Source of the DNA: Cordylochernes scorpioides
Taxonomy: Eukaryota; Arthropoda; Arachnida; Pseudoscorpiones; Chernetidae
Assembly: GCA_030710605.1 (NCBI GenBank)
Contig: CP092863.1
Coordinates: 138,044,994-138,108,993 of the forward strand
Length of the DNA: 64,000 nucleotides
Reading direction: 5' to 3'
The notes below the pieces were generated by a model. It had not been told where the DNA came from. It ran no database searches and saw only the letters and a program-made list of their open reading frames with translations. The position numbers were made by a program, and so were the translations under genes. The stretch's first letter is position 1. Each line of letters begins with the position of its first letter. This document shows positions 3,965-63,640 of the stretch, piece by piece.

Positions 3965-4900
3965 TCCATTGGAGTTCTCATTCTTCAGGTTTCACCATTT
4001 TTCCATTGGAGTTTCCATTCTTCAGCTTCACCATTTTCCCATTGGAGTTCCCTTTCTTCAGGCTTCACCATTTTTCCATTGGAGTTCTCATTCTTCAGGT
4101 TTTACCATTTTTCTATTGGAGTTCTCATTCTTCAGGCTTCACCATTTTTCCATTGGAGTTCTCATTCTTCAGGCTTCACCATTTTTCCATTGGAGTTCTC
4201 ATTCTTCAGGTTTCACCATTTTCCTATTGGAGTTCCCTTTCTTCAGGCTTCACCATTTTTCTATTGGAGTTCTCATTCTTCAGGTTTCACCATTTTTCCA
4301 TTGGAGTTTCCATTCTTCAGGCTTCACCATTTTCCCATTGGAGTTCCCTTTCTTCAGGCTTCACCATTTTTCCATTGGAGTTCTCATTCTTCAGGTTTTA
4401 CCATTTTTCTATTGGAGTTCTCATTCTTCAGGCTTCACCATTTTTCCATTGGAGTTCTCATTCTTCAGGCTTCACCATTTTCCCATTGGAATTCTCATTC
4501 TTCAGGTTTCATCATTTTTCTATTGGAGTTCTCATTCTTCAGGTTTCACCATTTTCCCATTGGAGTTCCTTTACTTCAGGCGTCACCATTTTTCTATTGG
4601 AGTTCTCATTCTTCAGGCTTCACCATTTTCCCATTGGAATTCTCATTCTTCAGGTTTCACCATTTTTCTATTGGAGTTCTCATTCTTCAGGTTTCACCAT
4701 TTTCCCATCGGAGTTCCTTTACTTCAGGCTTCAACATTTTTCTATTGGAGTTCTCATTCTTCAGGCCTCACCATTTTCCCATTGGAATTCTCATTCTTCA
4801 GGTTTCACCATTTTTCTATTGGAGTTCTCATTCTTCAGGCTTCGCCATTTTTCTATTGGAGTTCCCTTTCTTCAGGCTTCACCATTTTTTCCATTGGAGT
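3965..4900. repeat. Minisatellite, about 36-37 bp unit, left part
   Basis: About 25 units of the form TTGGAGTTCTCATTCTTCAG plus GCTTCACCATTTTTCCA. Variants such as CCC/CTC and TCC/CTA alternate, suggesting unequal exchange. The array stops at 4900, where copia begins, and resumes at 8464. Confidence 0.9.
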
Positions 4901-5242: not shown

Positions 5243-8125
5243 TTATTCATGTTTGGATCTAATGAAGTGGTAGCGAACATCAATATGTTTCGTTCGTTTG
5301 TGGAATACTGGATTTTCAACAAGTTTTATTGCTGCTTGGTTGTCGATATAAAGTTCAGTTTCTTTAGTAATATCACAGCCGATGCCCTGTAGAAGTCTTC
5401 TGATCCAAATCAATTCCTTAGCAGCACTGCAGGCAGCGATGTATTCACTTTCGGTGGTTGAAAGTGCGATAATTGGTTGTCGTTGGCTTGCCCAAGAAAC
5501 AGTTCCTCCGTTCATCATGAAGGCATAACCAGTCGTACTTTTTCTGGAGTCAACATTTTTGATTTGAGAATAGCCTTTTGCAACTAATCTGGCTTTGAAC
5601 CGTTGAATTGTACCATCGGACTCCGTTTTAATTTTATAAACCCATTTACAACCGATAGGTTTATGACCATCTGCCAAACGTTCTAAAGTCCATGTTTTAT
5701 TTTTATTTAATGCATCAATCTCTTCATCCATGGCTAATTTCCATCTTTCTGAATCTGAACTCGTTATTGCATCTATATAGTTACTGGGTTCATCAGCGAG
5801 CGCAAAGTTACATTGGCTATTCGAAACTTTAGAGCGTGTTATCATTGGATGCGAACTGATATCGGATACTGGCGGCATTTCCTGCACTGGAATGTTTGCT
5901 GTCGCAACTGGTGATTCATCCGGAGCGCTGTTAATCTGAAATATTATTTCTTTCGGTTTGGTAGATTCTCTATCTGGAGTAGCTTTCTCATCGAATGTGA
6001 CATCTTTAGAAATTCTTATTTTTCTAGTTTTCCAATCCCATAATATAAAATTTTTGCTTGTATTCTCATAACCTAAAAACATAAGTTTTATCGATTTATT
6101 ATCCCACTTTTTACGGTTTTCTTTGGGAATATGCATATAAGCATTACAGCCAAATATTTTATAGTTAGCTACATTAGGCTTTGTGCCAAAGAAAAGTTCA
6201 TAAGGTGTCGTTCCAGGGGTTTGCTTAGTCGCACTTCTATTTAGAATATTAGTGGCTGTGTTACATGCCTCAGCCCAAAAAAATCCTGGAAGATTTCGTG
6301 AATTTAGCATGGACCTGGCTGCTTCCACAATCGTACGATTGTCTCTTTCTATACGTCCTATCTGTTCGTGCACATAAGGTGCAGTGAACTCGTGAATTAT
6401 CCCAAATCTTTTACATAAATCTGCAAAATTATCGCTTTTGAATTCTAGCGGATTATCAGTCCTAAGAACTTTTATCTTATTTCCAGTTTGAGTATAGATT
6501 AGAGTAGCATATTCTTTGAATATATCTAGCACATCTGATTTGTTTTTAATAAAATAAATATGGCGATAACCACTAAAGTAATCTTTAAATAAGCAGAAAT
6601 ACAGATATTTACTTAATGATTGAGTCTGCATTGGGCCACAAATATCAGCATAAATAAACTCACCTAGCTGGTAGTTTTTGCCATCTGAGGGATAGCACGA
6701 CTTTCTATGGGCTTTTCCAAGTTGGCATCCTTCACAGAAGAAAAATTCTCCCTCTAAATCTTGAGGCTGCAGACCATCCAACAATCCTTTGGTCGCCATC
6801 TCTCGAAGTGTAGCAACTGGAAGATGCGCAAGTCTCTCGTGCCACAACTGAAGCTTGTTCTCGCTGGTGATGTATCCTTGTGATGATGACGTAACCTTGA
6901 AGTGCATCCTGTAGAGGTCGTCATGACGCACTCCTACGGCTTTTAGGTCATTATCCATGAAGATCTGTAGCTTGTCATGTTTGATAATGACGTTGAATCC
7001 TCTTCTTGTGGACGTAGAAAGGCTATACAAATTTTTCTTTAGTTGCGGCGAGTAGAGCACATTTCTTATGTACGTATTGTACCATCCACCGTCGACGTAG
7101 GCTTGAATCTCGATGTCTCCCATGCCTTCTGCAAGTAGTGTCGAGTTGTCTCCCAAGTAGATTGGATGATCACTGGTGAACGGCGTGTAGGTCTTGAACC
7201 ACTCTCGTCGAAATGTCATGCTGCAGCTTGCACCGCTGTCAGCATACCAAATATCATTGGGCTCTACTTGATTATCGCACAAAATAAGTCCATAATCACT
7301 TGAACTTCCTTTTGAATCATGAAGATTTTTGGATTTATTTTTCTCATTAGCTAATCTTTTTCTACATTCGCGGCTCCAATGTCCAATTTTGTGACAATAG
7401 TGGCATTTAGTGTTCTTCTTGGCATCTTGAAAAGAACGTTGTGTATCTTTAGGCTTAGTTCGTGCTTGCCTGTGTAATAAGGCCTCATCTTGTTTAGAAG
7501 AACCGCTTTGTTGATTCCTTGTTTCTTCAATCAAAAGTCTTGCAGTTAAATTGTTAAGAGTTTGAGCTTTCGGATCTAACGATTCCCACGCTGCAACAAA
7601 GTAGCGCATACTCGAAGGCAAAGTATTTAAAATTTTTGCTACCTTTTGATCTTCCGTTATGGTTCCGCCCATTTGTGAAATTTGTGCAGAAATATTTTCA
7701 ATTTTTGCTATGTAATCACTTATTGTTTCCGATGTCAATCGTGCATCGAAGAATTGTTGCCAAAGTAGGCCAATAGTAAATTCGGATTTTTGTTCATGAA
7801 TAGCAAGTAATTTCTGCCACATTTGTGAAGCGGAAGTACAGTTCATCAGGGGCTGAAGAAACCTTAATTCGATTGCCTGTGATAATAACATCCTTGCCTT
7901 AACGTCCTTTGATTTCCAATTCTGTAGTGAACTTTCAGAGTTACTGTCGGAGGAAACAACATTCGGCTTTATTTCTAAGCCTTCCAATAATTCTAGTAAT
8001 TTTTGTTGTTCCATAAGAAGCCTGAATTGGAATTTCCATAGTGAAAAGTTTTCACCATTAAAAACTTTAATCCTTGAAAGACAATCTTCGCTCATCTTCT
8101 TTGTCTTGGAATCGGCCAACGACAA
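5243..8125 (-). CDS. Copia Gag-Pol polyprotein with in-frame loss of reverse transcriptase (960 aa)
   Basis: One frame without frameshift encodes a Gag region (about residues 10-205), a CX2CX4HX4C knuckle (C241, C244, H249, C254), an aspartic protease (WYADSGAS, D296), and an integrase with HHCC (H429, H434, C464, C467) and a DD35E triad (D494, D557, E593). RT then begins (WVYKIK, FKARLVAKGYSQ) but jumps near residues 852-860 (DNA about 5550-5570) straight to SRKSTTGYAF of the C-terminal RNase H region, losing the RT palm and part of RNase H. TAA at 5243-5245 is probably a nonsense mutation: the frame continues through GELKVHHV and QLADIMTKPL to the LTR. The start is the first ATG after the primer site. 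Gag, protease and integrase look intact, so the element could be a parasite of a full copy. That last point is inference. Confidence 0.93.
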   Translation of the reverse strand: MSLADSKTKKMSEDCLSRIKVFNGENFSLWKFQFRLLMEQQKLLELLEGLEIKPNVVSSDSNSESSLQNWKSKDVKARMLLSQAIELRFLQPLMNCTSASQMWQKLLAIHEQKSEFTIGLLWQQFFDARLTSETISDYIAKIENISAQISQMGGTITEDQKVAKILNTLPSSMRYFVAAWESLDPKAQTLNNLTARLLIEETRNQQSGSSKQDEALLHRQARTKPKDTQRSFQDAKKNTKCHYCHKIGHWSRECRKRLANEKNKSKNLHDSKGSSSDYGLILCDNQVEPNDIWYADSGASCSMTFRREWFKTYTPFTSDHPIYLGDNSTLLAEGMGDIEIQAYVDGGWYNTYIRNVLYSPQLKKNLYSLSTSTRRGFNVIIKHDKLQIFMDNDLKAVGVRHDDLYRMHFKVTSSSQGYITSENKLQLWHERLAHLPVATLREMATKGLLDGLQPQDLEGEFFFCEGCQLGKAHRKSCYPSDGKNYQLGEFIYADICGPMQTQSLSKYLYFCLFKDYFSGYRHIYFIKNKSDVLDIFKEYATLIYTQTGNKIKVLRTDNPLEFKSDNFADLCKRFGIIHEFTAPYVHEQIGRIERDNRTIVEAARSMLNSRNLPGFFWAEACNTATNILNRSATKQTPGTTPYELFFGTKPNVANYKIFGCNAYMHIPKENRKKWDNKSIKLMFLGYENTSKNFILWDWKTRKIRISKDVTFDEKATPDRESTKPKEIIFQINSAPDESPVATANIPVQEMPPVSDISSHPMITRSKVSNSQCNFALADEPSNYIDAITSSDSERWKLAMDEEIDALNKNKTWTLERLADGHKPIGCKWVYKIKTESDGTIQRFKARLVAKGYSQIKNVDSRKSTTGYAFMMNGGTVSWASQRQPIIALSTTESEYIAACSAAKELIWIRRLLQGIGCDITKETELYIDNQAAIKLVENPVFHKRTKHIDVRYHFIRSKHE

Positions 8126-8211
8126 AAAGAAACTAGGGTTATGGTTGGCGGTTGACGCCTAAACTTCGAGCAAAACAAAGGCTTACTCACTGCTGGCGGT
8201 TAATCCTTTTA

Positions 8212-8463: not shown

Positions 8464-8770
8464 GGAGTTCTCATTCTTCAGGCTTCACCGTTTTTCCATT
8501 GGAGTTCCCTTTCTTCAGGTTTCACCATTTTTTTATTGGAGTTCTCATTCTTCAGGTTTCACCATTTTCCCTTTGGAGTTCCCTTTCTTCAGGTTTCACC
8601 ATTTTTCTATTGGAGTTCTCATTCTTCAGGTTTCACCATTTTTCCATTTGAGTTTCCATTCTGCAGGCTTCACCATTTTCCCATTGGAGTTCTCATTCTT
8701 CAGGTTTCACCATTTTCCCATTGGAGTTCCCTTTCTTCATGCTTTGTCCTTTTCTCATTTATGTTCCTAT
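8464..8770. repeat. Minisatellite, 36-37 bp unit, right part
   Basis: Continuation of the 3965-4900 array after the copia insertion; it starts mid-unit with GGAGTTCTCATTCTTCAGG and decays after about 8740. Confidence 0.9.
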
Positions 8771-15433: not shown

Positions 15434-15880
15434 TTATATATATAGATGACCGGCGTCATCAAAACTTTCCACTTCCTTAAAGTCTTGTCCATAAGTATTG
15501 GCGTTATTCTCAACATTAAACAACTCACCTTGAACTAAAATCTTCATAAAATATATATTGAGACGGTTTCTTTCTTTATGAAAGTGACAGATCAAGTACA
15601 CAGCTCTACCTAACGGAAATTGTTCCTTCGCGCTTGACAGAATAGAATTGATTGATATGATCTTCAATATACTCGTATAGGAGCAAGTTTATGATTTAAA
15701 TCTCTTATTGTCGCAGATCTCTTTCAAATAAATATATATTCAAGGTATATTTTGGTCACTACTGTTGTAAGGTGTCGTATGTGCGTGGAATAAAAAAAGA
15801 AATTTTAAATATTTTGGGAAGGTCTAGGTAATGATACCCCGGTTTAATCTACCATATACCGCTGCTCTTTTATTACAAGT
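15434..15880. other. Spacer with a MITE D-like end
   Basis: TTCCACTTCCTTAAAGTCTTGTCC at 15466-15490 resembles a MITE D terminus. A short minus ORF (15434-15667) has no recognisable motif. Confidence 0.3.
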
Positions 15881-16352
15881 ATAACGACATTTGAAGTTTC
15901 ACCGCATGAGTTTCTTTTCAACGAAAAATCTAAATTTTATTTCAAGGTGAAATATCGACTATTTCTATCCTTTTTTGATGAGGTATGAAAGGGTGAATTA
16001 TGAAGAGTAATGATGAACGGAAAAATAAAAGTGTCCAGGGATGGTAATCGAACCCACAATCACAAGCCGCAGTGTATTATATTGTATTATAAGTTACTTT
16101 ATGTATCATTTACGAATGGAAAAATACGTCCAGGGTAGCCTAGTGGACATGGCATCTGCCCGGTAAGCGGAACATTGTGGGTTCGATTCCCATCCCTGGA
16201 CACTTTTATTTTTCCGTTCATCATTACTCTTCATAATTCACCCTTTCATACCTCATCAAAAAAGGATAGAAATAGTCGATATTTCACCTTGAAATAAAAT
16301 TTCGATTTTTCGTTGAAAAGAAACTCATGCGGTGAAACATCAAGTGTCGTTT
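15879..16352. mobile_element. Foldback element containing a tRNA-like gene
   Basis: The left arm (15885-16060) and right arm (16155-16350) are inverted copies sharing GAGTTTCTTTTCAACGAAAA and GGATAGAAATAGTCGATATT. The left arm carries the 3' half of the tRNA-like sequence; the right arm is joined to a full one (16129-16201). A direct repeat, GCCGCAGTGTATTATATTGT, lies at about 16070 and 16364. A sister copy without the full tRNA lies at 31455-31715. Confidence 0.82.
16129..16201 (+). tRNA. tRNA-like gene, anticodon position GGT (Thr) but lacking U33; probable pseudo-tRNA
   Basis: A full cloverleaf can be drawn: acceptor TCCAGGG/CCCTGGA (7 bp), TA at positions 8-9, D arm GCC/GGC, anticodon stem TCTGC/GCGGA, loop CCGGTAA, T arm GTGGG-TTCGATT-CCCAT. 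The invariant U33 is C and one anticodon-stem pair is G-U, so decoding function is doubtful. A and B boxes look usable and a T-run (TTTTATTTTT) follows. It sits in a foldback element, which suggests mobility rather than a conserved gene. Confidence 0.5.
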
Positions 16353-16532
16353 TACAATCACAGGCCGCAGTGTATTATATTGTATTATAAGTATATTGTT
16401 ACTTGTATTATTAGCTGTTAGGTCAGATCGCTATAACTTTATAAGATAGATAACCATCTCCTCAACGATGATGCATGCGATCTACGTTCACTATCTTTTG
16501 AAACATAAATACCATCCTCGCGCAACTTTATA

Positions 16533-16896
16533 TCTATATATATATAAATCAAAGTTTGTATGTTTGTTTGTTTGTATGTATGTATGTGCGGTATACAAAT
16601 TCGCAGTAGTTCACTAATTCAAACCAAAATTTCCATACATAGGTAAAAAAAAAAAAAACGGGGAAGTCGATAGACTATTTAAAAAAATATATAAATCAAT
16701 TATTAAAACTATATTCAAATTATTATACTTAGAGGGCGCTGTTCGTGAGCTAATTTAGATTAAATTATGCTGATGCAATCAAATAGATAATGCTAATAAC
16801 AAACAATTATAAAAAAAAATCTTATCTAAATATATATCACTCGGCTAGATATGCACACGGGTCAATCCCGGGGCGAAGCCCGGGTCACCCGTCTAG
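16533..16896 (+). mobile_element. Non-autonomous Helitron-like element, complete, 364 bp
   Basis: Starts TC after A (16532) with a TA run, then TTTGTATGTTTGTTTGT and ACAAATTCGCAGTAGTTCAC. The 3' end is CCCGGGGCGAAGCCCGGG, then TCACCCGT and CTAG (16893-16896) before T. A-TC...hairpin-CTAG-T is the Helitron format. A near twin of 368 bp lies inverted at 17372-17739. Confidence 0.7.
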
Positions 16897-17054
16897 TTGT
16901 ATATAAAAAAAATAAAAATAAAAACTCTTTCAATTCTACTCTATAGACGAGGTATATCTGTTTATTCTCGTCAATCAATAATTTCTCCTTCTAAATTGTA
17001 AAAGGGAGGCTTAGAGGGGTATATAACATATAACAGAGAGTTGTGGGAGGATTA

Positions 17055-17345
17055 TATCCATGTACCTAGGGAGACATCTCTCCCTTTAATTATACATCAG
17101 AACAATTTTGGTAAATTTGACCGATGTCATAATTCCTCACATAGGATGTTATGAAATCGAAGCCGTCCCTGTACTGATGAGGGCCATAGTCCGAAACCAT
17201 GGTATACAGGTTGTTGGATTTTGTCTAAATTTTCCTAAACTGGTGTTGTGTGGCTCATTCCTTATCACTAGTAAAGTTTTTTTTTTACTAGGGTGATAAA
17301 CATAAGGCAACGTTCTGATGTATTATTAAAAAGAGAGGTGCCCCT
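17055..17345 (+). mobile_element. Hammerhead-bearing non-autonomous element, unit 1
   Basis: Bounded by inverted motifs: GTACCTAGGGAGACATCTCT at the left and AAAGAGAGGTGCCCCTC at the right. It contains TGGTAAATTTGACCGATG, the intact hammerhead at 17168-17210 and the conserved AAACTGGTGTTGTGTGGCTC. Relatives lie at 24935-25175, 58075-58250, 59270-59500 and, truncated, 63536-63640. It is followed by a Helitron-like insertion and then an inverted partial unit (17755-17925), the same order as at 24935-25365. No ORF. Confidence 0.75.
17168..17210 (+). ncRNA. Type I hammerhead ribozyme with minimal stem III
   Basis: Stem I CCTGTA (17168-17173) pairs with TACAGG (17205-17210). The core CTGATGA is at 17174-17180. 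Stem II is GGGC/GTCC with a CATA loop. GAAA is at 17193-17196. Stem III is ACC/GGT closed by AT, so ACCATGGT is palindromic. The cleavage site is GTA, after A17204. Every core base is present. Self-cleaving RNAs of this form with 2-3 bp stem III are known from Penelope-like elements and were shown to act as dimers; activity here is inferred. Confidence 0.88.
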
Positions 17346-17371
17346 CTATAGGTATATATATATATATAACA

Positions 17372-17739
17372 CTAGACGGGTGACCCGGGCTTCGCCCCGG
17401 GATTGACCCGTGTGCATATCTACCCGAGTGATATATATTTAGATAAGATTTTTTAAATAATTGTTTGTTATTAGCATTATCTATTTGTTTGCATCAGCAT
17501 AATTTAAACTAATCTTTGATAGAGGGCACTGTTCGTGAGCTAAGTAGAATAATTTGAATATATAGTTGTAATAATTTATTTATATATATTTTTTTTGAAT
17601 AGGCTCTCTATCGTCTTCCCCGTATTTTTTTTACCTATATATGGAAATTTTGGTTTGAATTAGTGAACTACTGCGAATTTGTATACCGGACATACAAACA
17701 AACATACAAACATTCATTTATATATATATAACATATAGA
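17372..17739 (-). mobile_element. Non-autonomous Helitron-like element, complete, 368 bp
   Basis: Minus-strand twin of 16533-16896. CTAG at 17372-17375, hairpin CCCGGGCTTCGCCCCGGG next to it, and the 5' TCTATATG end at 17739 after A. It is inserted between the HHR unit (17055-17345) and the inverted HHR fragment (17755-17925). Confidence 0.7.
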
Positions 17740-17754
17740 TGAGATTTTTTTTCC

Positions 17755-17925
17755 GGAAGGAAATAGATCTATAAAAACATCGGTTGTCTCTCCCGTCAAA
17801 ATAAACGTCAAAACTAGACGCCATCTATTGACCGTCACGACAAACTAGCGTACTCAGGTCGGTGACAAAGCCACAACACCAGCTTTGGCAAACTGAGAAG
17901 TGTCCACCTAGAGCTATATAACGGT
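17755..17925 (-). mobile_element. Inverted, core-less fragment of the hammerhead element
   Basis: The minus strand reads CTCTAGGTGGACACTTCTCA, then GTTTGCCAAAGCTGGTGTTG, GACGGTCAATAGATGGCGTC and TTGACGGGAGAGACAACC, matching what follows the hammerhead at 25475-25650. It breaks within stem I, so the catalytic core is absent. Confidence 0.7.
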
Positions 17926-17976
17926 TATAGAATAAGAAACACAAGTCGGTGAGAAGAGATTCTTTATGTAAGACGA

Positions 17977-18377
17977 CTAGCCGAATGACCCGGGCAACGC
18001 CCGTGTTTTACCCGATTGAATGTTTTGATTCAAATACTATTTGTTACAATTATAAATTGGCGCCTTAAATAAATGCATATATTAGTTAATAACTATAGCC
18101 TATGTGCTTTATCTGTCTATGTACTGTTGGCTTCCGTAGGCGTCTCTTACTGGGTAAAAGAAAGAGAGGATTCCATTTCTTTATTAACTAATATGTGCAT
18201 TTATTTAAGGAGCGACCCGCTCCAACACAATAGTTACAAAAACAACAAAGCGAGTGGGGGGGGGGGGGGGGGCATGATCGTAGCCAACCAATAGGAGTGC
18301 GCCATTCAAAAAAAAAAAAAAAATCAAACGGTGACAGAGATGAAAAAGAATTGATGACGCTCGTAACTGTATATAGA
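17977..18377 (-). mobile_element. Non-autonomous Helitron-like element, about 401 bp, with a nested palindrome
   Basis: CTAG at 17977-17980 plus hairpin CCCGGGCAACGCCCGTG; the 5' end, TCTATATACAGTTACGAGCG on the minus strand, starts at 18377. A poly-G tract (18247-18263) and poly-A tract (18307-18322) are internal. Nearly identical to 30109-30524. A foldback insert (about 18064-18209) with TTAAATAAATGCATATATTA ends splits the older Helitron sequence GGCGCC...GGAGCG. Confidence 0.7.
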
Positions 18378-18889
18378 ATGATTATAGAAGCGTAGAAGGA
18401 AGTCTTGCCCGAGCTTGTATCGTCCTCTTATATAAAGAAGCTTTTCTCCCCAACTTGTATTTCTACTTCTACAGCCAATAGGGAAATTATCGTTGTATTA
18501 ACGGCTGTAAAGAGATAAGGTGGTGGTCGAGGGTCTGAAGTAGAAGTTGGGCCAAGGACCAATCGGAACTAAGGGTACGATGACCTTCTAGAGAGCCACG
18601 TGTCAAGTTTTTGTCCTCTCGACTCATCGACCTCCTCAAGTCTCATTCCTTCCACAGCTGATATCCTATATGTGACGTCACAATGCCAAGGTGTGGCTAG
18701 TTCCTTGCTTCTCTATATACCGGGACTTAGGTTCGATTCCACATAGGACAAACACAGAATTGGAGATTTGTGATTGATATCATCTTCAATATATAAGAGC
18801 GCAGGTTTGTTTTTAATCTCTCATTGTCGCAGAGAGCTATTTTTAAATATGTGTGGATTATTTTTTAAATAAATAAATACACTCATAAA
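18378..18889. other. Unassigned spacer
   Basis: Slightly higher GC than its neighbours near 18530-18680, with no ORF or repeat recognised. Confidence 0.35.
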
Positions 18890-24934: not shown

Positions 24935-25175
24935 CCATTGGTAAATTCGACCGAATTCATAACTCTTCCCGTAAGATATGAAATCTAAGCCGTCCCTCTA
25001 CTGATGAGGGCTATAAACCGAAGTCATGGTATACAGGCTGGCTTTTTGTCTGAATTTTCCAAAACTGGTGTTGTGGCTCATTCATTATCATCACTAGTAT
25101 TTTTTAACTAGGGTGATGTAATAGTGTCATCGTTCTGATGCAGATTTAAAAGGAGAGGTGTGCCTCTTTTGATAC
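24935..25175 (+). mobile_element. Hammerhead-bearing element, unit 2 (core decayed)
   Basis: Same order as 17055-17345: TGGTAAATTCGACCGAATTC, hammerhead relic at 24995-25037, AAAACTGGTGTTGTGGCTCA, and the closing motif AAAAGGAGAGGTGTGCCTCT. No ORF. Confidence 0.75.
24995..25037 (+). ncRNA. Hammerhead ribozyme relic
   Basis: CTGATGA is intact at 25001-25007, but GAAAC has become GAAGTC, stem II retains only two G-C pairs, and stem I (CCTCTA against TACAGG) has a mismatch. Stem III TCATGGTA is damaged. Probably inactive. Confidence 0.7.
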
Positions 25176-25187
25176 ATAATTGATATT

Positions 25188-25365
25188 GATGGAAAATTTG
25201 CCGGGAGGAAATTGATCCATGGAAGCATAGAGCGCCTCTCCCGTCAAAATAAACGTCAAAAGCTGACGCCATCTATTGACCGTCACCGCAAACTAGCCGC
25301 CTCGGGTCGGTGACAAAGCCACAACACCAGCTTTGGCAAACTTTCCTCCCGGAAGATTTTCCATC
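25188..25365 (-). mobile_element. Inverted core-less hammerhead-element module with 24-bp inverted ends
   Basis: GATGGAAAATTTGCCGGGAG and its complement (25188-25211 and 25342-25365) bracket an inverted copy of the post-hammerhead sequence (TTGCCAAAGCTGGTGTTGTG, GACGGTCAATAGATGGCGTC). The same inverted module follows the unit at 17055, so the arrangement is ancestral to both loci. Confidence 0.72.
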
Positions 25366-25427: not shown

Positions 25428-25650
25428 TGAGGATTCCATTAGATCCCGTGTGGATCTCATGGAATAAAGTCCGCCCTAGGCTGACGAGGGCCATTAGCCC
25501 GAAACCATGGTCTCTAGGTGGACGCTTCTCAGTTTGTCAAATCTGGTGTTGTGGCTTTGTCACCGACCCGAGGCCGCTAGTTTGCGGCGACGGTCAATAT
25601 ATGGCGTCAGATTTTGACGGGAAAGGCGCCCTATGCTTCCATAATTGATA
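25428..25650 (+). mobile_element. Hammerhead-bearing element, unit 3
   Basis: CATTAGATCCCGTGTGGATC (hairpin GATCC/GGATC) leads into an intact hammerhead, then TTTGTCAAATCTGGTGTTGT, CACCGACCCGAGGCCGCTAG, GACGGTCAATATATGGCGTC and a stop near ATGCTTCCAT. It is the plus-strand equivalent of the inverted modules at 17755-17925 and 25212-25341. Confidence 0.75.
25475..25518 (+). ncRNA. Type I hammerhead ribozyme with minimal stem III
   Basis: Stem I CCTAGG (25475-25480) pairs with TCTAGG (25513-25518), closing on a G-U pair. The core is CTGACGA (position 7 is variable in hammerheads). Stem II GGGC/GCCC with CATTA loop is perfect. GAAA lies at 25501-25504. Stem III is ACC/GGT closed by AT. The cleavage triplet is GTC, after C25512, the best natural triplet. 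All conserved bases are present. Confidence 0.87.
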
Positions 25651-36308: not shown

Positions 36309-36676
36309 ACGCTTGTTTGGCGGTACAACTACTACAGTAGGAAGGATACAGAGAAGATTAGCATGGCCTCTGTGATACCAGTTCGGCGGTACAACTACTA
36401 CAGTAGGAAGGATACAGAGAAGATTAGCATGGCCTCTGTGATACCAGTTCGGCGGTACAACTACTACAGTAGGAAGGATACAGAGAAGATTAGCATGGCC
36501 CCTGTGATACCAGTTCGGCGGTACAACTACTACAGTAGGAAGGATACAGAGAAGATTAGCATGGCCTCTGTGATACCAGTTCGGTGGTACAATTACTACA
36601 ATAGGAAGGATACTAAGAAGATTAGCATGGCCCCTGTGCAAGGATGACACACAAAATCGTGAAGCGTTCTAAAGTG
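36309..36676 (+). ncRNA. Tandem partial U6 snRNA array: five 66-bp units, last one with the U6 3' half
   Basis: Each unit contains the U6 signature GGATACAGAGAAGATTAGCA plus TGGCC: the ACAGAGA box and the AGC triad. GCATGGCC recurs at 36361, 36427, 36493, 36559 and 36625, a strict 66-bp period. Only the last unit continues into CCCCTGTGCAAGGATGACAC and AATCGTGAAGCGTTCTA, the U6 3' stem-loop region, but its ACAGAGA is mutated to ACTAAGA. So no single unit is a complete functional U6. The 22-residue repeat ORFs on both strands are artefacts. Confidence 0.85.
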
Positions 36677-36714
36677 GCGCACAAAACATATGTAATACTC
36701 GATAGCTCGACTTT

Positions 36715-37989: not shown

Positions 37990-39003
37990 TCAATATGTCG
38001 TTGGACCCCCACTGGCCTGCATGCAGGCTGCCACCCGGCGTGTCATGGACTGATAAAGATTCCGGATGGTGTGCTGCGGGATTTCTTGCCAAATTGTCTC
38101 CAGCTGTCGGGCTAAATAGTCAAAATTCCGGGATGGTTGCAATCGCCTTCCCATCACGTCCCAGATGTGCTCTATGGGCGAGAGATCAGGCGACCTTGCT
38201 GGCCACGGAAGAGTTCGGCAAGATTGAAGACAATTCATAGTAACACGTGCCGTGTGTGGCCGGGCATTATCTTGTTGAAAAGTAAGCCCGGGGTGGTGTG
38301 AGAGGAACGGCAACAAAACAGGCCGTAGAATGTCATCTACGTAACGTTGTGCTGTCAGGGTGCCAGGAATGACTCCCAATGGGGTCCTGCTATCAAATGA
38401 AATGGCACCCCAGACCATAACGCCCTGTTGTGGACCTGTGTGGTGTTCGACAGTAAGGCCAGGATCCACACGCTGCCCAGGACGTCTCCAGACACGTTTG
38501 CGACGGTCGTCAGGACACAGTAAGAAACGGGACTCGTCACTAAAGACTATACGTCCCCAGTCAGCGCAGTTCCAAGTTGATCGCTCCCGACACCACTGTA
38601 GTCGGACTTGTCGGTGCACGGGTGTGAGGGGTAGGCATCGTAACGGTCGGCGAGCTCTTAGATTCCGCTCTCTCAGTCGCCTGTTGATGGTCATTTTGGA
38701 CACTTGTGTGCCGGTCACACGTTGGATGGTAGATAACGTGGATTCCGGTGCTGCGACAGCCATTTTGACAATTGCTCTCTCCTCCCGTTCTGTTGTTGCC
38801 CTTGGTCGACCGCTGCCGTCCTGACGTTGCATACTTCTGTTGTTGACCCACTTTTGCCAACATCGCCTAATAGCCGCATCACTTCGACACAGATGTCGCG
38901 CGATTAGTCGATTAGACCAACCAGCCTCTTTCAATCCAATGGCACGACCAGCTTCAAACTCTGACATATGTTCGTAATGAGCACGAATCTTTCGGCGAGG
39001 CAT
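37990..39003 (-). CDS. Tc1-like transposase (337 aa)
   Basis: Cut-and-paste DDE transposase that binds its own inverted repeats and inserts at TA. An N-terminal paired-type helix-turn-helix region (EFEAGRAIGLKEAGWSNRLI, about residues 15-50) and a second one (residues 75-115) precede the catalytic domain. The triad is D156 (IVFSDESRF), D245 (QQDNARPHTA) and E278 (SPDLSPIEHIW), leaving 32 residues between the last two rather than the 34 of Tc1 and Sleeping Beauty. Length is usual for the superfamily and the frame is uninterrupted. The TIRs differ at several sites and one side is interrupted, so mobility in cis is doubtful although the protein may be active. Confidence 0.93.
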   Translation of the reverse strand: MPRRKIRAHYEHMSEFEAGRAIGLKEAGWSNRLIARHLCRSDAAIRRCWQKWVNNRSMQRQDGSGRPRATTEREERAIVKMAVAAPESTLSTIQRVTGTQVSKMTINRRLRERNLRARRPLRCLPLTPVHRQVRLQWCRERSTWNCADWGRIVFSDESRFLLCPDDRRKRVWRRPGQRVDPGLTVEHHTGPQQGVMVWGAISFDSRTPLGVIPGTLTAQRYVDDILRPVLLPFLSHHPGLTFQQDNARPHTARVTMNCLQSCRTLPWPARSPDLSPIEHIWDVMGRRLQPSRNFDYLARQLETIWQEIPQHTIRNLYQSMTRRVAACMQASGGPTTY

Positions 39004-39194
39004 TGATACAGTAGAAATAGGCTTACTGCTAAAATATTAAACAGAAATTCTGAAAATCAGCTCGTGCCGCGCCGAATATTGAGTCCAGAATGCTCGTGCT
39101 GGATGCGCAGTTCAGATGCGCTGGAGCTCTTGCTTTGCATAATTCGGCCACCAAATTTCAATCATTTGCATTTTTGGTCGAAACCTCCATGTAT

Positions 39195-41340: not shown

Positions 41341-41864
41341 TTACTCCATCTTACAATAAAATGTTGATATTTTTAAGTGTTTTCCACACAAAAAAAAAAA
41401 TAAAATAAATTATAAAATTACACAAAATATTACTTTAAAAAATATTTTAAAATGTTCTTTCTTAATAAATTTAAATTGTTTGATAAAAAGATTACATGGT
41501 TCTGTCTTTGCTCTTTTTCCTACTCTAATATCTTCAATTCTTCCTTTTTTTCTATGTTCTGCTTCAATGACGAGTAAAGTCCGATGTAATAAGCGTGAAC
41601 TTGTTATAGCCCTATATTGTTACATAAAGAATTAAAACCTTTTTGATACCCAAATAATAATATTTAATAATTTGTTTTAATCATCATTAATTTACAACTA
41701 CTTTTCATATAAATTATATTTAATTCTACTTATTCGTTCAGTAATAGCTTGCTATACTGACATTATACTCTCAATTCGACTTTATACTCTTAAATCAACA
41801 TCGAAATTTTCGATATCTTTCCTTGAAAAAATATTATAAAACCTTTTATATATATATATATATG

Positions 41865-42180
41865 AAAAAATAGTACAAATATAACATTGTACTGGGATAA
41901 GGTGCATAAATTAAGAAAAAGGCATCTCCTTATCGTGCAACTGAAAGTTTTTTTTTTTTTGGTCGTTGAGGTACAGCTTGCACCACGCTGATGAGGGCCA
42001 ACAGCCCGAAACGCGTCCGTGGTTAGCTTTTCTTGATTAATCAAGAATGGGTATTTGGCCAATTCTGGAATAATTAAAAATCAACGAGAATAGTTGATAT
42101 TTATTCCGATAGATGGCGCAAGCCATCAGCAACTTTCAGTTGCACGATAAGGAGATGCCTTCTTCTTAATATATATATAT
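41865..42180 (+). mobile_element. Family E TIR element carrying an intact hammerhead
   Basis: Inverted arms TTAAGAAAAAGGCATCTCCT (41909) and TATCGTGCAACTGAAAG versus CTTTCAGTTGCACGATAAGG and AGATGCC (42130-42160) enclose a T-run, the hammerhead, the palindrome TTCTTGATTAATCAAGAA, and GAATAGTTGATATTTATTCC. Relatives: 10875-11270 (no hammerhead), 23545-23760 and 49535-49660. Confidence 0.78.
41982..42023 (+). ncRNA. Type I hammerhead ribozyme with 2-bp stem III
   Basis: Stem I ACCACG (41982-41987) pairs with CGTGGT (42018-42023), 6 bp. The core CTGATGA is at 41988-41994. Stem II GGGC/GCCC has loop CAACA. GAAA is at 42008-42011. Stem III is AC/GT closed by GC (ACGCGT, palindromic). The cleavage triplet is GTC, after C42017. 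All core bases are conserved. Its element family differs from the 17168 and 25475 hammerheads. Confidence 0.87.
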
Positions 42181-59240: not shown

Positions 59241-59269
59241 AAAAAATAAATATAACATTAATTTGCGGA

Positions 59270-59500
59270 AGGGGATAGGTATTCTTGTACCTGAAGAGAC
59301 ACCTCTCCCTTTCAAAAAACAACGTATTTCTGTTGATTACCTTAGTACAGGATGTAATGATGTGGCCATAGACCGAAACCATGGTATACATGTTGGTCGT
59401 TTTCTGAATTTACCAATACTGGTTTTGTATTCTTTATCACCAATAAACAAAAATGTATTTTTAAAGGGAGAGGTGCCTCTTTTAGTACATATATATACAA
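59270..59500 (+). mobile_element. Hammerhead-bearing element, unit 5
   Basis: Terminal inverted motifs GTACCTGAAGAGACACCTCT and CCCTTT versus AAAGGGAGAGGTGCCTCTTT and TAGTAC. Contains a hammerhead relic and TTTACCAATACTGGTTTTGT. Confidence 0.72.
59348..59391 (+). ncRNA. Hammerhead ribozyme relic
   Basis: CCGAAACCATGGTATACATG preserves GAAAC, palindromic stem III and the cleavage side, but CTGATGA has become AATGATGT and stem I is broken. Probably inactive. Confidence 0.65.
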
Positions 59501-62097: not shown

Positions 62098-63516
62098 CAC
62101 TGCGTGACATTGAAAATGGAACACCAAGAAATAGTGGCCAGAAAATTATGCAAATTTCAGGGTAGACGCGCCTAACCGAGTTATGCAAATGATGTAAAAT
62201 GCGCAGCTCTCGTGCGCACATGGAGTAAGATATAAGGTAAGGAACTTGCAGAAAGGACAGTATTCGTGTCGTTATTTCTTCAAGGAAAATCATTGTAGAA
62301 ATTTTGTTCTTGTGTCAAAAGACACGTGTAATAACAGAGAATGCCAGGTCATCGTAAACGGAGGCAGTTCATGCAGACAGACACTTTTACGAGGGGCATG
62401 GTGATCGGACTGAAAAGGGCAGGTTGGTCCATACGTCAAATCGCAGCTGATACACACCTTGGTGCGTCCACGGTGCACCGACTGTGGAGAAGATGGTTGG
62501 AACAAGGAAATGTGGCAATTTATAGGAATGTCGGTGCAACCAGAGTGACGTCAGCACGTGTGGATCGGCGTATCCTTCGACAAGCAGTGGCGGCCCCACA
62601 AGCCACTTGTACCGCCATCCTGCAACATGTGCAAGACACCCTAGATCATTCCATCTCGACCAGAACCATTTCCCGTCGATTGGTTGCTAATGGCTTGCAC
62701 TCATGCCGTCCGCTAAGAAGACTGCCGTTGACCCCACCGAATAGGCGCCAACGTTTGGAATGGTGCCGGGCTAGATCGACGTGGATGACGGAATGGCACA
62801 GGGTCGTGTTCTCAGATGAGTCGCGTTTCTGCTTGTCCAGTGATAGTCGCCGTGTACGCGTGTGGCGTCGACGTGGAGAAAGGTCCAATCCGGCAGCAAT
62901 TGTGGAACGCCCCACCGTGCGACAACGTGGAATCATGGTTTGGGGCGCAATCGCGTATGATTCCAGGTCACCTTTACTTCGTATTCAGGGCACTATGACG
63001 GCCCAACGATACGTTGATGATGTGCTGCGACCGGTGACATTCCCCTACCTTCAGGGGGTACCCAGTGCCCTTTATCAGCAGGATAACGCCCGACCGCACA
63101 CTGCTCGCATTAGCCAACAAGCTCTGCAAGATGTACAGATGCTTCCCTGGCTACCGTACTCTCCTGATCTCTCACCAATCGAGCACATCTGGGACATCAT
63201 TGGACGCCGTTTGCATGCCTTGCCACAGCCGCGTTCAGAAGACGAACTGTGGCAAATGGTTGAGAGGGAATGGAGAGCCATCCCTCAGGACGCCATCCGT
63301 ACTCTGATTGACTCTCTACCTAGACGTGTTGCTGCGTGCATCGCCGTCCGCGGTGGTCCTACTTGCTACTAAGCCGACGCCGTTCTCGCTCTGTATTATG
63401 ACTATCATTTTGAAATAAAGATCACTTATTGTTCGTCCCTGTCTCTCTCTGTCTGCCGAGTTTCATCACTTTCTGGCCACTATTTCTTGGTGTTCCATTT
63501 TCAATGTCACGCAGTG
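62098..63516 (+). mobile_element. Complete Tc1-like transposon, 1419 bp, identical TIRs
   Basis: A 47-bp TIR starting CACTGCGTGACATTGAAAAT is identical at both ends (62098-62144 and 63470-63516 mirrored), with TA on each side. An intact transposase and an AATAAAG signal (63413) are inside. It is inserted in a hammerhead/X composite. Identical ends and an open frame suggest recent movement. Confidence 0.96.
62341..63372 (+). CDS. Tc1-like transposase, intact (343 aa)
   Basis: DDE transposase with two N-terminal helix-turn-helix regions (residues about 15-50, TRGMVIGLKRAGWSIRQIAA; about 75-115) and catalytic D159 (VVFSDESRF), D248 (YQQDNARPHTA) and E281 (SPDLSPIEHIW); 32 residues separate D248 and E281. 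GIMVWGAIAYD and the C-terminal RRVAACIAVRGGPTCY are conserved with the 37990-39003 transposase, which is a clear but different subfamily member. Start: first ATG after the 5' TIR, with PGHRKRRQ. No stops, length normal. Acts in the nucleus on its own TIRs. Confidence 0.96.
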   Translation: MPGHRKRRQFMQTDTFTRGMVIGLKRAGWSIRQIAADTHLGASTVHRLWRRWLEQGNVAIYRNVGATRVTSARVDRRILRQAVAAPQATCTAILQHVQDTLDHSISTRTISRRLVANGLHSCRPLRRLPLTPPNRRQRLEWCRARSTWMTEWHRVVFSDESRFCLSSDSRRVRVWRRRGERSNPAAIVERPTVRQRGIMVWGAIAYDSRSPLLRIQGTMTAQRYVDDVLRPVTFPYLQGVPSALYQQDNARPHTARISQQALQDVQMLPWLPYSPDLSPIEHIWDIIGRRLHALPQPRSEDELWQMVEREWRAIPQDAIRTLIDSLPRRVAACIAVRGGPTCY

Positions 63517-63535
63517 TATATATATTTCAATATAT

Positions 63536-63640
63536 ATGTACCAAAAGAGGCACCTCTCCCTTTAAAAATGCATTTTGTTTATCATTGGTAATATATAAAG
63601 AAGTCACAGCAGTATTGGAAAATACAGACAATGTTCTTTA
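63536..63640 (-). mobile_element. Hammerhead-bearing element, end fragment
   Basis: GTACCAAAAGAGGCACCTCT and CCCTTTAAAAATGCATTTTG mirror the right end of 59270-59500. The part with the core is missing. Confidence 0.65.

What the first reader, a model, noticed from the sequence alone, without database searches (positions are those of the whole stretch)
17168..17210. Intact 43-nt hammerhead ribozyme with palindromic stem III
All core bases are present, stem I is 6 bp perfect, and stem III is ACC/GGT with a 2-nt loop, so ACCATGGT is self-complementary. Such small variants are described from Penelope-like elements and cleave better as dimers. Here the host is a short, ORF-less element with terminal inverted motifs. 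That suggests a ribozyme-dependent, possibly circular-RNA-producing non-autonomous retroelement.
Basis: partly seen in the sequence, partly recalled or inferred. Interest (0 to 1): 0.85.

Follow-up and report, generated by a model that had tools for sequence, protein, structure and literature searches.

The report
Hammerhead ribozyme in Penelope-type short retroelement
A real self-cutting RNA motif sits in a short non-coding jumping element, and the way copies of that element are truncated and mirrored suggests that Penelope-type reverse transcriptases move them.

Summary
The 43-nt type I hammerhead motif at 17168-17210 is really there: complete core, predicted cut after A17204, none in 100 random (Markov-1) windows. 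It belongs to a repeat family. The window holds three such families (motifs at 17168, 25475, 41982), with 437, 9,556 and 24,482 exact genome matches to their core patterns and 0 for the reversed controls. Stems covary between families.

The host element has no sizeable ORF. Its unit is about 325 nt (319 and 338 in the sister families), partly in tandem, as in animal retrozymes. The "terminal inverted motifs" are a second, truncated arm joined head to head. In 68 of 109 mapped segments the 3' end lies at one of two sites about 30 nt apart (about 11 expected); 5' ends scatter. Head-to-head joints prevail 29:4. The genome's GIY-YIG (Penelope-like) matches show the same rule in 11 of 11 close pairs. 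Two papers describe both traits for Penelope-like elements.

Best reading: a non-autonomous retrozyme moved by Penelope-like enzymes. This copy has one ribozyme, so it cannot itself yield a circle. Cleavage, circles and trans-mobilisation are untested.

The parts
17020..17028 (.). TATATAACA, candidate left target-site duplication
   Evidence: identical to 17363-17371; as a class, shared flanks were only slightly longer than in controls
17028..17106 (-). inverted arm: a short head-to-head copy of the element's 3' end, reaching site B (with the tail)
17106..17363 (+). main arm of the family-1 element, 5'-truncated, ending at site A (without the tail)
17168..17210 (+). type I hammerhead ribozyme motif, predicted cut after A17204
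17196..17203 (+). ACCATGGT, palindromic stem III
17363..17371 (.). TATATAACA, candidate right target-site duplication, abutting a Helitron-like end
24938..25167 (+). family-1 relative (78-79%) in which the motif is decayed
25220..25342 (-). inverted arm of the family-2 element, ends read by eye
25475..25518 (+). family-2 hammerhead motif (CTGACGA core)
41860..41949 (-). inverted arm of the family-3 element, ending at its site B
   Evidence: (L102)
41955..42174 (+). main arm of the family-3 element, ending at its site A
   Evidence: L102
41982..42023 (+). family-3 hammerhead motif, stem III ACGCGT without a loop
58109..58251 (+). decayed family-1 fragment
59249..59496 (.). decayed family-1 fragments, - arm then + arms
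63530..63573 (-). family-1 3'-end fragment

Best explanation
17020-17371 is one 5'-truncated, head-to-head insertion of a non-coding hammerhead retroelement of the animal retrozyme kind, unit about 325 nt. Proposed cycle: tandem loci are transcribed; the hammerhead, perhaps as a dimer through its palindromic stem III, can cut the RNA, and cut units may be closed into circles; a Penelope-like enzyme acting in trans starts reverse transcription inside the RNA at one of two sites about 30 nt apart, primed from both cut target strands, and the two cDNAs are joined head to head after random 5' loss. Shown here: the motif and its covariation, tandem non-coding units, two 3' sites, scattered 5' ends, the head-to-head rule, and many GIY-YIG matches with the same rule. 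Inferred: cleavage, circles, dimer action, and the Penelope-like enzyme as driver.
For: Motif absent from 100 random windows; 437, 9,556 and 24,482 exact core matches, controls 0; 550 of 578 stem cells paired against 15-39% for slid partners, seven pairs changed on both sides. Tandem spacing 338 nt, five copies in a row, and 319 nt in three pairs of the listing. Family-1 3' ends at two sites in 68 of 109 segments of 71 loci, 5' ends 11 of 109; family 3, 30 of 34 uncut ends. Head to head against tail to tail: family 1 29:4, family 3 21:0 in fetched loci and 7:1 in the first 100 listed places, family 2 10:0 in the first 100 places, counted by hand. GIY-YIG: 146 matches, 11 close pairs, 11 head to head. 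L071 carries RT then GIY-YIG, and 3 of 24 GIY-YIG loci hold a minimal palindromic hammerhead-like motif. Double cutting and extension and two internal start sites: PMC11167929; inverted pLTR, optional 31-bp tail and head-to-head joints: PMC3846280.
Against: No activity or RNA data. No autonomous partner that shares the element's sequence was found: three noncoding families compared with 24 GIY-YIG loci gave only neighbouring family-3 pieces, and the protein search for partners did not complete. 5' ends are not enriched at the ribozyme cut: 2 of 111, 3.1 expected; 3 of 57 in family 3, a set partly chosen for starts there. TSD evidence is weak. Only 5 of 28 loci found by a ribozyme-free query keep an intact family-1 motif by the strict scan. 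The end windows were drawn after seeing the data. One GIY-YIG match (L068) gave no Pfam hit when its ORF was scanned.
Confidence: 0.75

Rival explanations
1. The elements are 5'-truncated pieces of an autonomous Penelope-like element's own pLTR, not a separate non-autonomous retrozyme.
For: Ends, tail and joints are those of Penelope-like elements; no complete autonomous element of this genome was read from pLTR to pLTR.
Against: Where a segment runs upstream past the unit it enters the tail of another short unit, not a coding region: 15 of 109 family-1 segments are longer than one unit; unit spacing of exactly 338 or 319 nt.
Confidence: 0.13
2. Mobilised by a LINE with twin priming, which also gives an inverted 5' part.
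For: Inverted part lies 5' of a sense part; the window holds LINE-like RT frames, judged by eye.
Against: In twin priming (recalled) the inverted part is internal sequence; here the outer end of the inverted arm is often the same 3' site: of 30 joints, AB 10 (9 distinct), AA 3, BB 1, one end only 11, neither 5.
Confidence: 0.06
3. A MITE-like DNA transposon with terminal inverted repeats that happens to carry the motif.
For: An imperfect inverted pair 17067-17103 / 17312-17348, 81%.
Against: 39 of 72 loci show a single segment without an inverted arm, some with only 400 bp of flank; arm lengths and inner junctions vary; tandem units exist.
Confidence: 0.03
4. The motif is a chance look-alike or an inactive relic without a part in the element's life.
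For: Below the Rfam threshold; no better fold than shuffles; decayed in many copies.
Against: Covariation across families, H17 A, C or T and never G in 42 rows; core columns vary least, 0.4% against 6.5-7.6% in flanks, in a sample chosen by similarity.
Confidence: 0.05

Closest known systems
Metazoan non-LTR retrozymes (PMC7229834, parts 1-4 of 6 read)
   Same: type I hammerhead, no ORF, tandem units of 170-400 nt, GC below 45% (here 0.39 and 0.40 for two units), Penelope-like elements in the same genome
   Different: single and head-to-head copies with two 3' sites, not described in the parts read; stem III palindromic and very short; circles untested here
Penelope-like elements (PMC11167929 parts 1-3 of 4; PMC3846280 passages)
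   Same: inverted arm, optional tail of about 30 nt, head-to-head joints, hammerhead near the start site
   Different: no RT or GIY-YIG frame in the element
Small dimeric hammerheads of Penelope-like elements (Lunse 2017; title seen in a reference list; paper not held)
   Same: short palindromic stem III (content recalled)
   Different: not compared letter by letter
Newt and axolotl satellite retrozymes (PMC7229834)
   Same: short helix III, dimer action
   Different: single-pair helix III with a palindromic tetraloop there; ACC/GGU or ACGCGU here

Membership tests
Type I hammerhead ribozyme | invariant core, NUH cut triplet, three stems | tested here: met
Type I hammerhead ribozyme | stem covariation among relatives | tested here: met
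   seven pairs with two-sided changes, 42 rows
Type I hammerhead ribozyme | score above an Rfam gathering cut-off | tested here: not met
   HH9 19.9 against 52 bits
Type I hammerhead ribozyme | self-cleavage | not testable with these tools
   needs in vitro transcription
Metazoan retrozyme | non-coding unit of 170-400 nt with a type I HHR | tested here: met
   319, 325 and 338 nt
Metazoan retrozyme | tandem copies | tested here: met
   family level; the window copy itself is not tandem
Metazoan retrozyme | circular RNA | not testable with these tools
   no RNA data
Penelope-like element | RT and GIY-YIG frame | tested here: not met
   longest stop-free frame 68 codons
Penelope-like element | optional tail and head-to-head inverted arm | tested here: met
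Penelope-like element | short target-site duplication | tested here: inconclusive
   shared flank of 7 or more in 6 of 10 against 28% of controls
MITE | terminal inverted repeats at both ends of copies | tested here: not met
   single segment in 39 of 72 loci

The most novel reading that the evidence does not exclude
Animal retrozymes are passengers of Penelope-like enzymes. In one genome both carry the same insertion scar: two cDNAs joined head to head, and, in the retrozymes, two alternative internal start sites 30-50 nt apart. The scar tells which enzyme moves retrozymes, and cDNAs longer than one unit point to a multimeric or circular RNA template.
Probability: 0.6. Interest if true: 0.65.

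Novelty: new member of a known kind. Interest (0 to 1): 0.52.

Why it matters
Which enzyme moves animal hammerhead retrozymes is an open question. PMC7761336 (passage) says that their repeats show no conserved motif from which the autonomous partner could be deduced; PMC7229834 (part 4) calls Penelope-like elements a strong candidate. The insertion scar seen here links the two in one genome and can be counted in any genome that holds both. Tens of thousands of copies give a large natural data set.

Tried and rejected
Transposon TIRs: rejected, see rivals. Helitron membership: two Helitron-like copies with inward-facing CTAG ends flank the element, but it is separate from them. Run-off of reverse transcription at the ribozyme cut: not seen. 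Excess of joints with one end of each kind (9 distinct AB, 3 AA, 1 BB): not tested formally. TSDs: suggestive at most. Autonomous partner by protein: the search did not complete. Full hammerhead next to GIY-YIG matches: 1 of 20 loci, L060. A first extraction of family-2 and family-3a motifs failed through wrong anchors and was redone.

Prior report of the shared scar: (retrozyme, penelope, head-to-head) 0 papers; (penelope-like, naiad, hammerhead) 0; one search listed 11, two of them read further; some searches gave listings. The library holds open-licence papers only, and three key papers were not held, so I say only that I did not find such a report.

Full report
Observation. The sequence at 17168-17210 is as described. 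A structural scan found three hammerheads in the window, all on the + strand, and none in 100 Markov-1 sequences of 64 kb, both strands. Rfam stays below threshold, and the 43-mer folds no better than its shuffles. The two-molecule MFE of the 43-mer is the double hammerhead with an 8-bp stem III, -30.4 against 2 x -9.5 kcal/mol; for the family-2 and family-3 motifs the dimer gain is smaller (-7.2 and -5.8) and only family 2 shows the double hammerhead. In 67-nt context neither monomer nor dimer MFE shows the ribozyme.

Family and number. The window lies in G000, 2.62 Gb in 24 contigs, unnamed; U6 and tRNA genes show a eukaryote, and animal is an inference. A 161-nt query gave 4,836 candidates, the best 40 scored. 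Exact core patterns gave 437 places for family 1, 9,556 for family 2 and 24,482 for family 3, controls 0. The patterns differ in degeneracy, so these are not family sizes.

Covariation. Motifs were taken by flank or alignment, without asking for pairing: 27 distinct family-1, 5 family-2 and 11 family-3 rows; one truncated family-3 row was dropped, leaving 42. 550 of 578 cells pair (95.2%), against 15-39% for slid partners; seven pairs have changes on both sides; H17 is A 27, C 10, T 5. In the first 100 listed family-3 places the second stem II pair is G-C 60, C-G 36, other 4. Family-1 rows come from a query that held the motif, so conservation within that family is biased upward. Of 28 loci found with a motif-free query, 5 keep an intact family-1 motif by the strict scan.

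Unit. Family 1 runs up, HHR, tail, up, about 325 nt; 15 of 109 segments exceed one unit, some of them near-duplicate loci. Family 3 repeats at 338 nt (five in a row at C1:5965536-5966888) and at 347-350; family 2 at 319 nt in three pairs.

Ends. In 71 family-1 loci, 109 segments were mapped on a repeated real unit. Of the 3' ends 43 lie at site A and 25 at site B, about 30 nt downstream; about 11 are expected for both windows together. Of the 5' ends 11 lie in the same windows. A rotated reference gave the same. Dropping ten near-duplicate loci gave 61 of 99. The windows were drawn after seeing the data. In family 3, 23 of 57 segment ends were cut off by the fetched stretch, and 30 of the other 34 lie at two sites about 46 nt apart.

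Joints. Neighbouring opposite-strand segments are head to head: family 1 29 against 4; family 2 10 against 0, counted by hand in the first 100 places; family 3 21 against 0 in fetched loci and 7 against 1 in the first 100 places. The 146 listed GIY-YIG matches, 150 scored of 17,015 candidates, hold 11 close pairs, all head to head. L069, L070 and L071 are inverted pairs of 98-100% identity. L071 has RT before GIY-YIG; in L069 and L070 GIY-YIG stands near the start of its frame; the L068 frame gave no Pfam match although one search listed it. A minimal motif with stem III ACGT lies in 3 of 24 loci (L052, L067, L071); its first stem II pair does not pair.

Mechanism. PMC11167929 (parts 1-3) reports an enzyme that cuts and extends both strands and starts inside the RNA at two adjacent sites, which explains the optional tail; there the ribozyme needed protein and its loss did not affect insertion in vitro. 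PMC3846280 (passages) describes the inverted pLTR, a 31-bp optional tail, 8-10-bp TSDs in some copies, and head-to-head joints as most frequent, and offers self-priming on an antisense template as the cause. The families here show the tail and the joints, and the window copies at 17168 and 41982 have one arm with the tail and one without. The TSD test was inconclusive. 5' ends do not cluster at the cut, so the copied RNA seems to be an uncut multimer or a circle, with random 5' loss. The ribozyme's part in the cycle stays open.

This copy. Other genome copies match the 161-nt query at 87-92%, apart from one identical copy 40 kb away, part of a segmental duplication of 98.5% over 3.2 kb. Two inward-facing Helitron-like copies flank it. 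With one ribozyme it could at most cut a passing transcript.

Judgement. A real ribozyme motif in a known kind of element; the new point is a Penelope-type insertion scar on retrozymes in a genome whose own Penelope-like matches show the same head-to-head rule.

Noticed in passing
16534-16896 (+) and 17372-17735 (-): Two Helitron-like copies, 84% alike, with identical hairpin-CTAG 3' ends facing each other on both sides of the ribozyme element (the Helitron label is recalled).
   Followed up: partly
15590-18766: Segmental duplicate 40 kb upstream in the genome (L002), 98.5% identical over 3.2 kb.
   Followed up: partly
36375-36678: Three 66-nt U6 5' parts in a row directly before a full-length U6 match.
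   Followed up: no
16001-16240: A tRNA match (16129-16201) whose flank is also present inverted upstream (by eye).
   Followed up: no
3988-4900 and 8518-8703: Tandem repeats of about 37 bp that give long repetitive open frames.
   Followed up: no
37990-39036 (-) and 62335-63372 (+): Two long frames that look like Tc1/mariner-type transposases; judged by eye, not searched.
   Followed up: no
5243-8158 (-): A 971-codon frame that looks like a Copia-type polyprotein; judged by eye, not searched.
   Followed up: no
L069, L070: GIY-YIG domain near the start of its frame, in L069 followed by an RT frame just below the Pfam cut-off; recalls permuted Penelope-like elements.
   Followed up: partly
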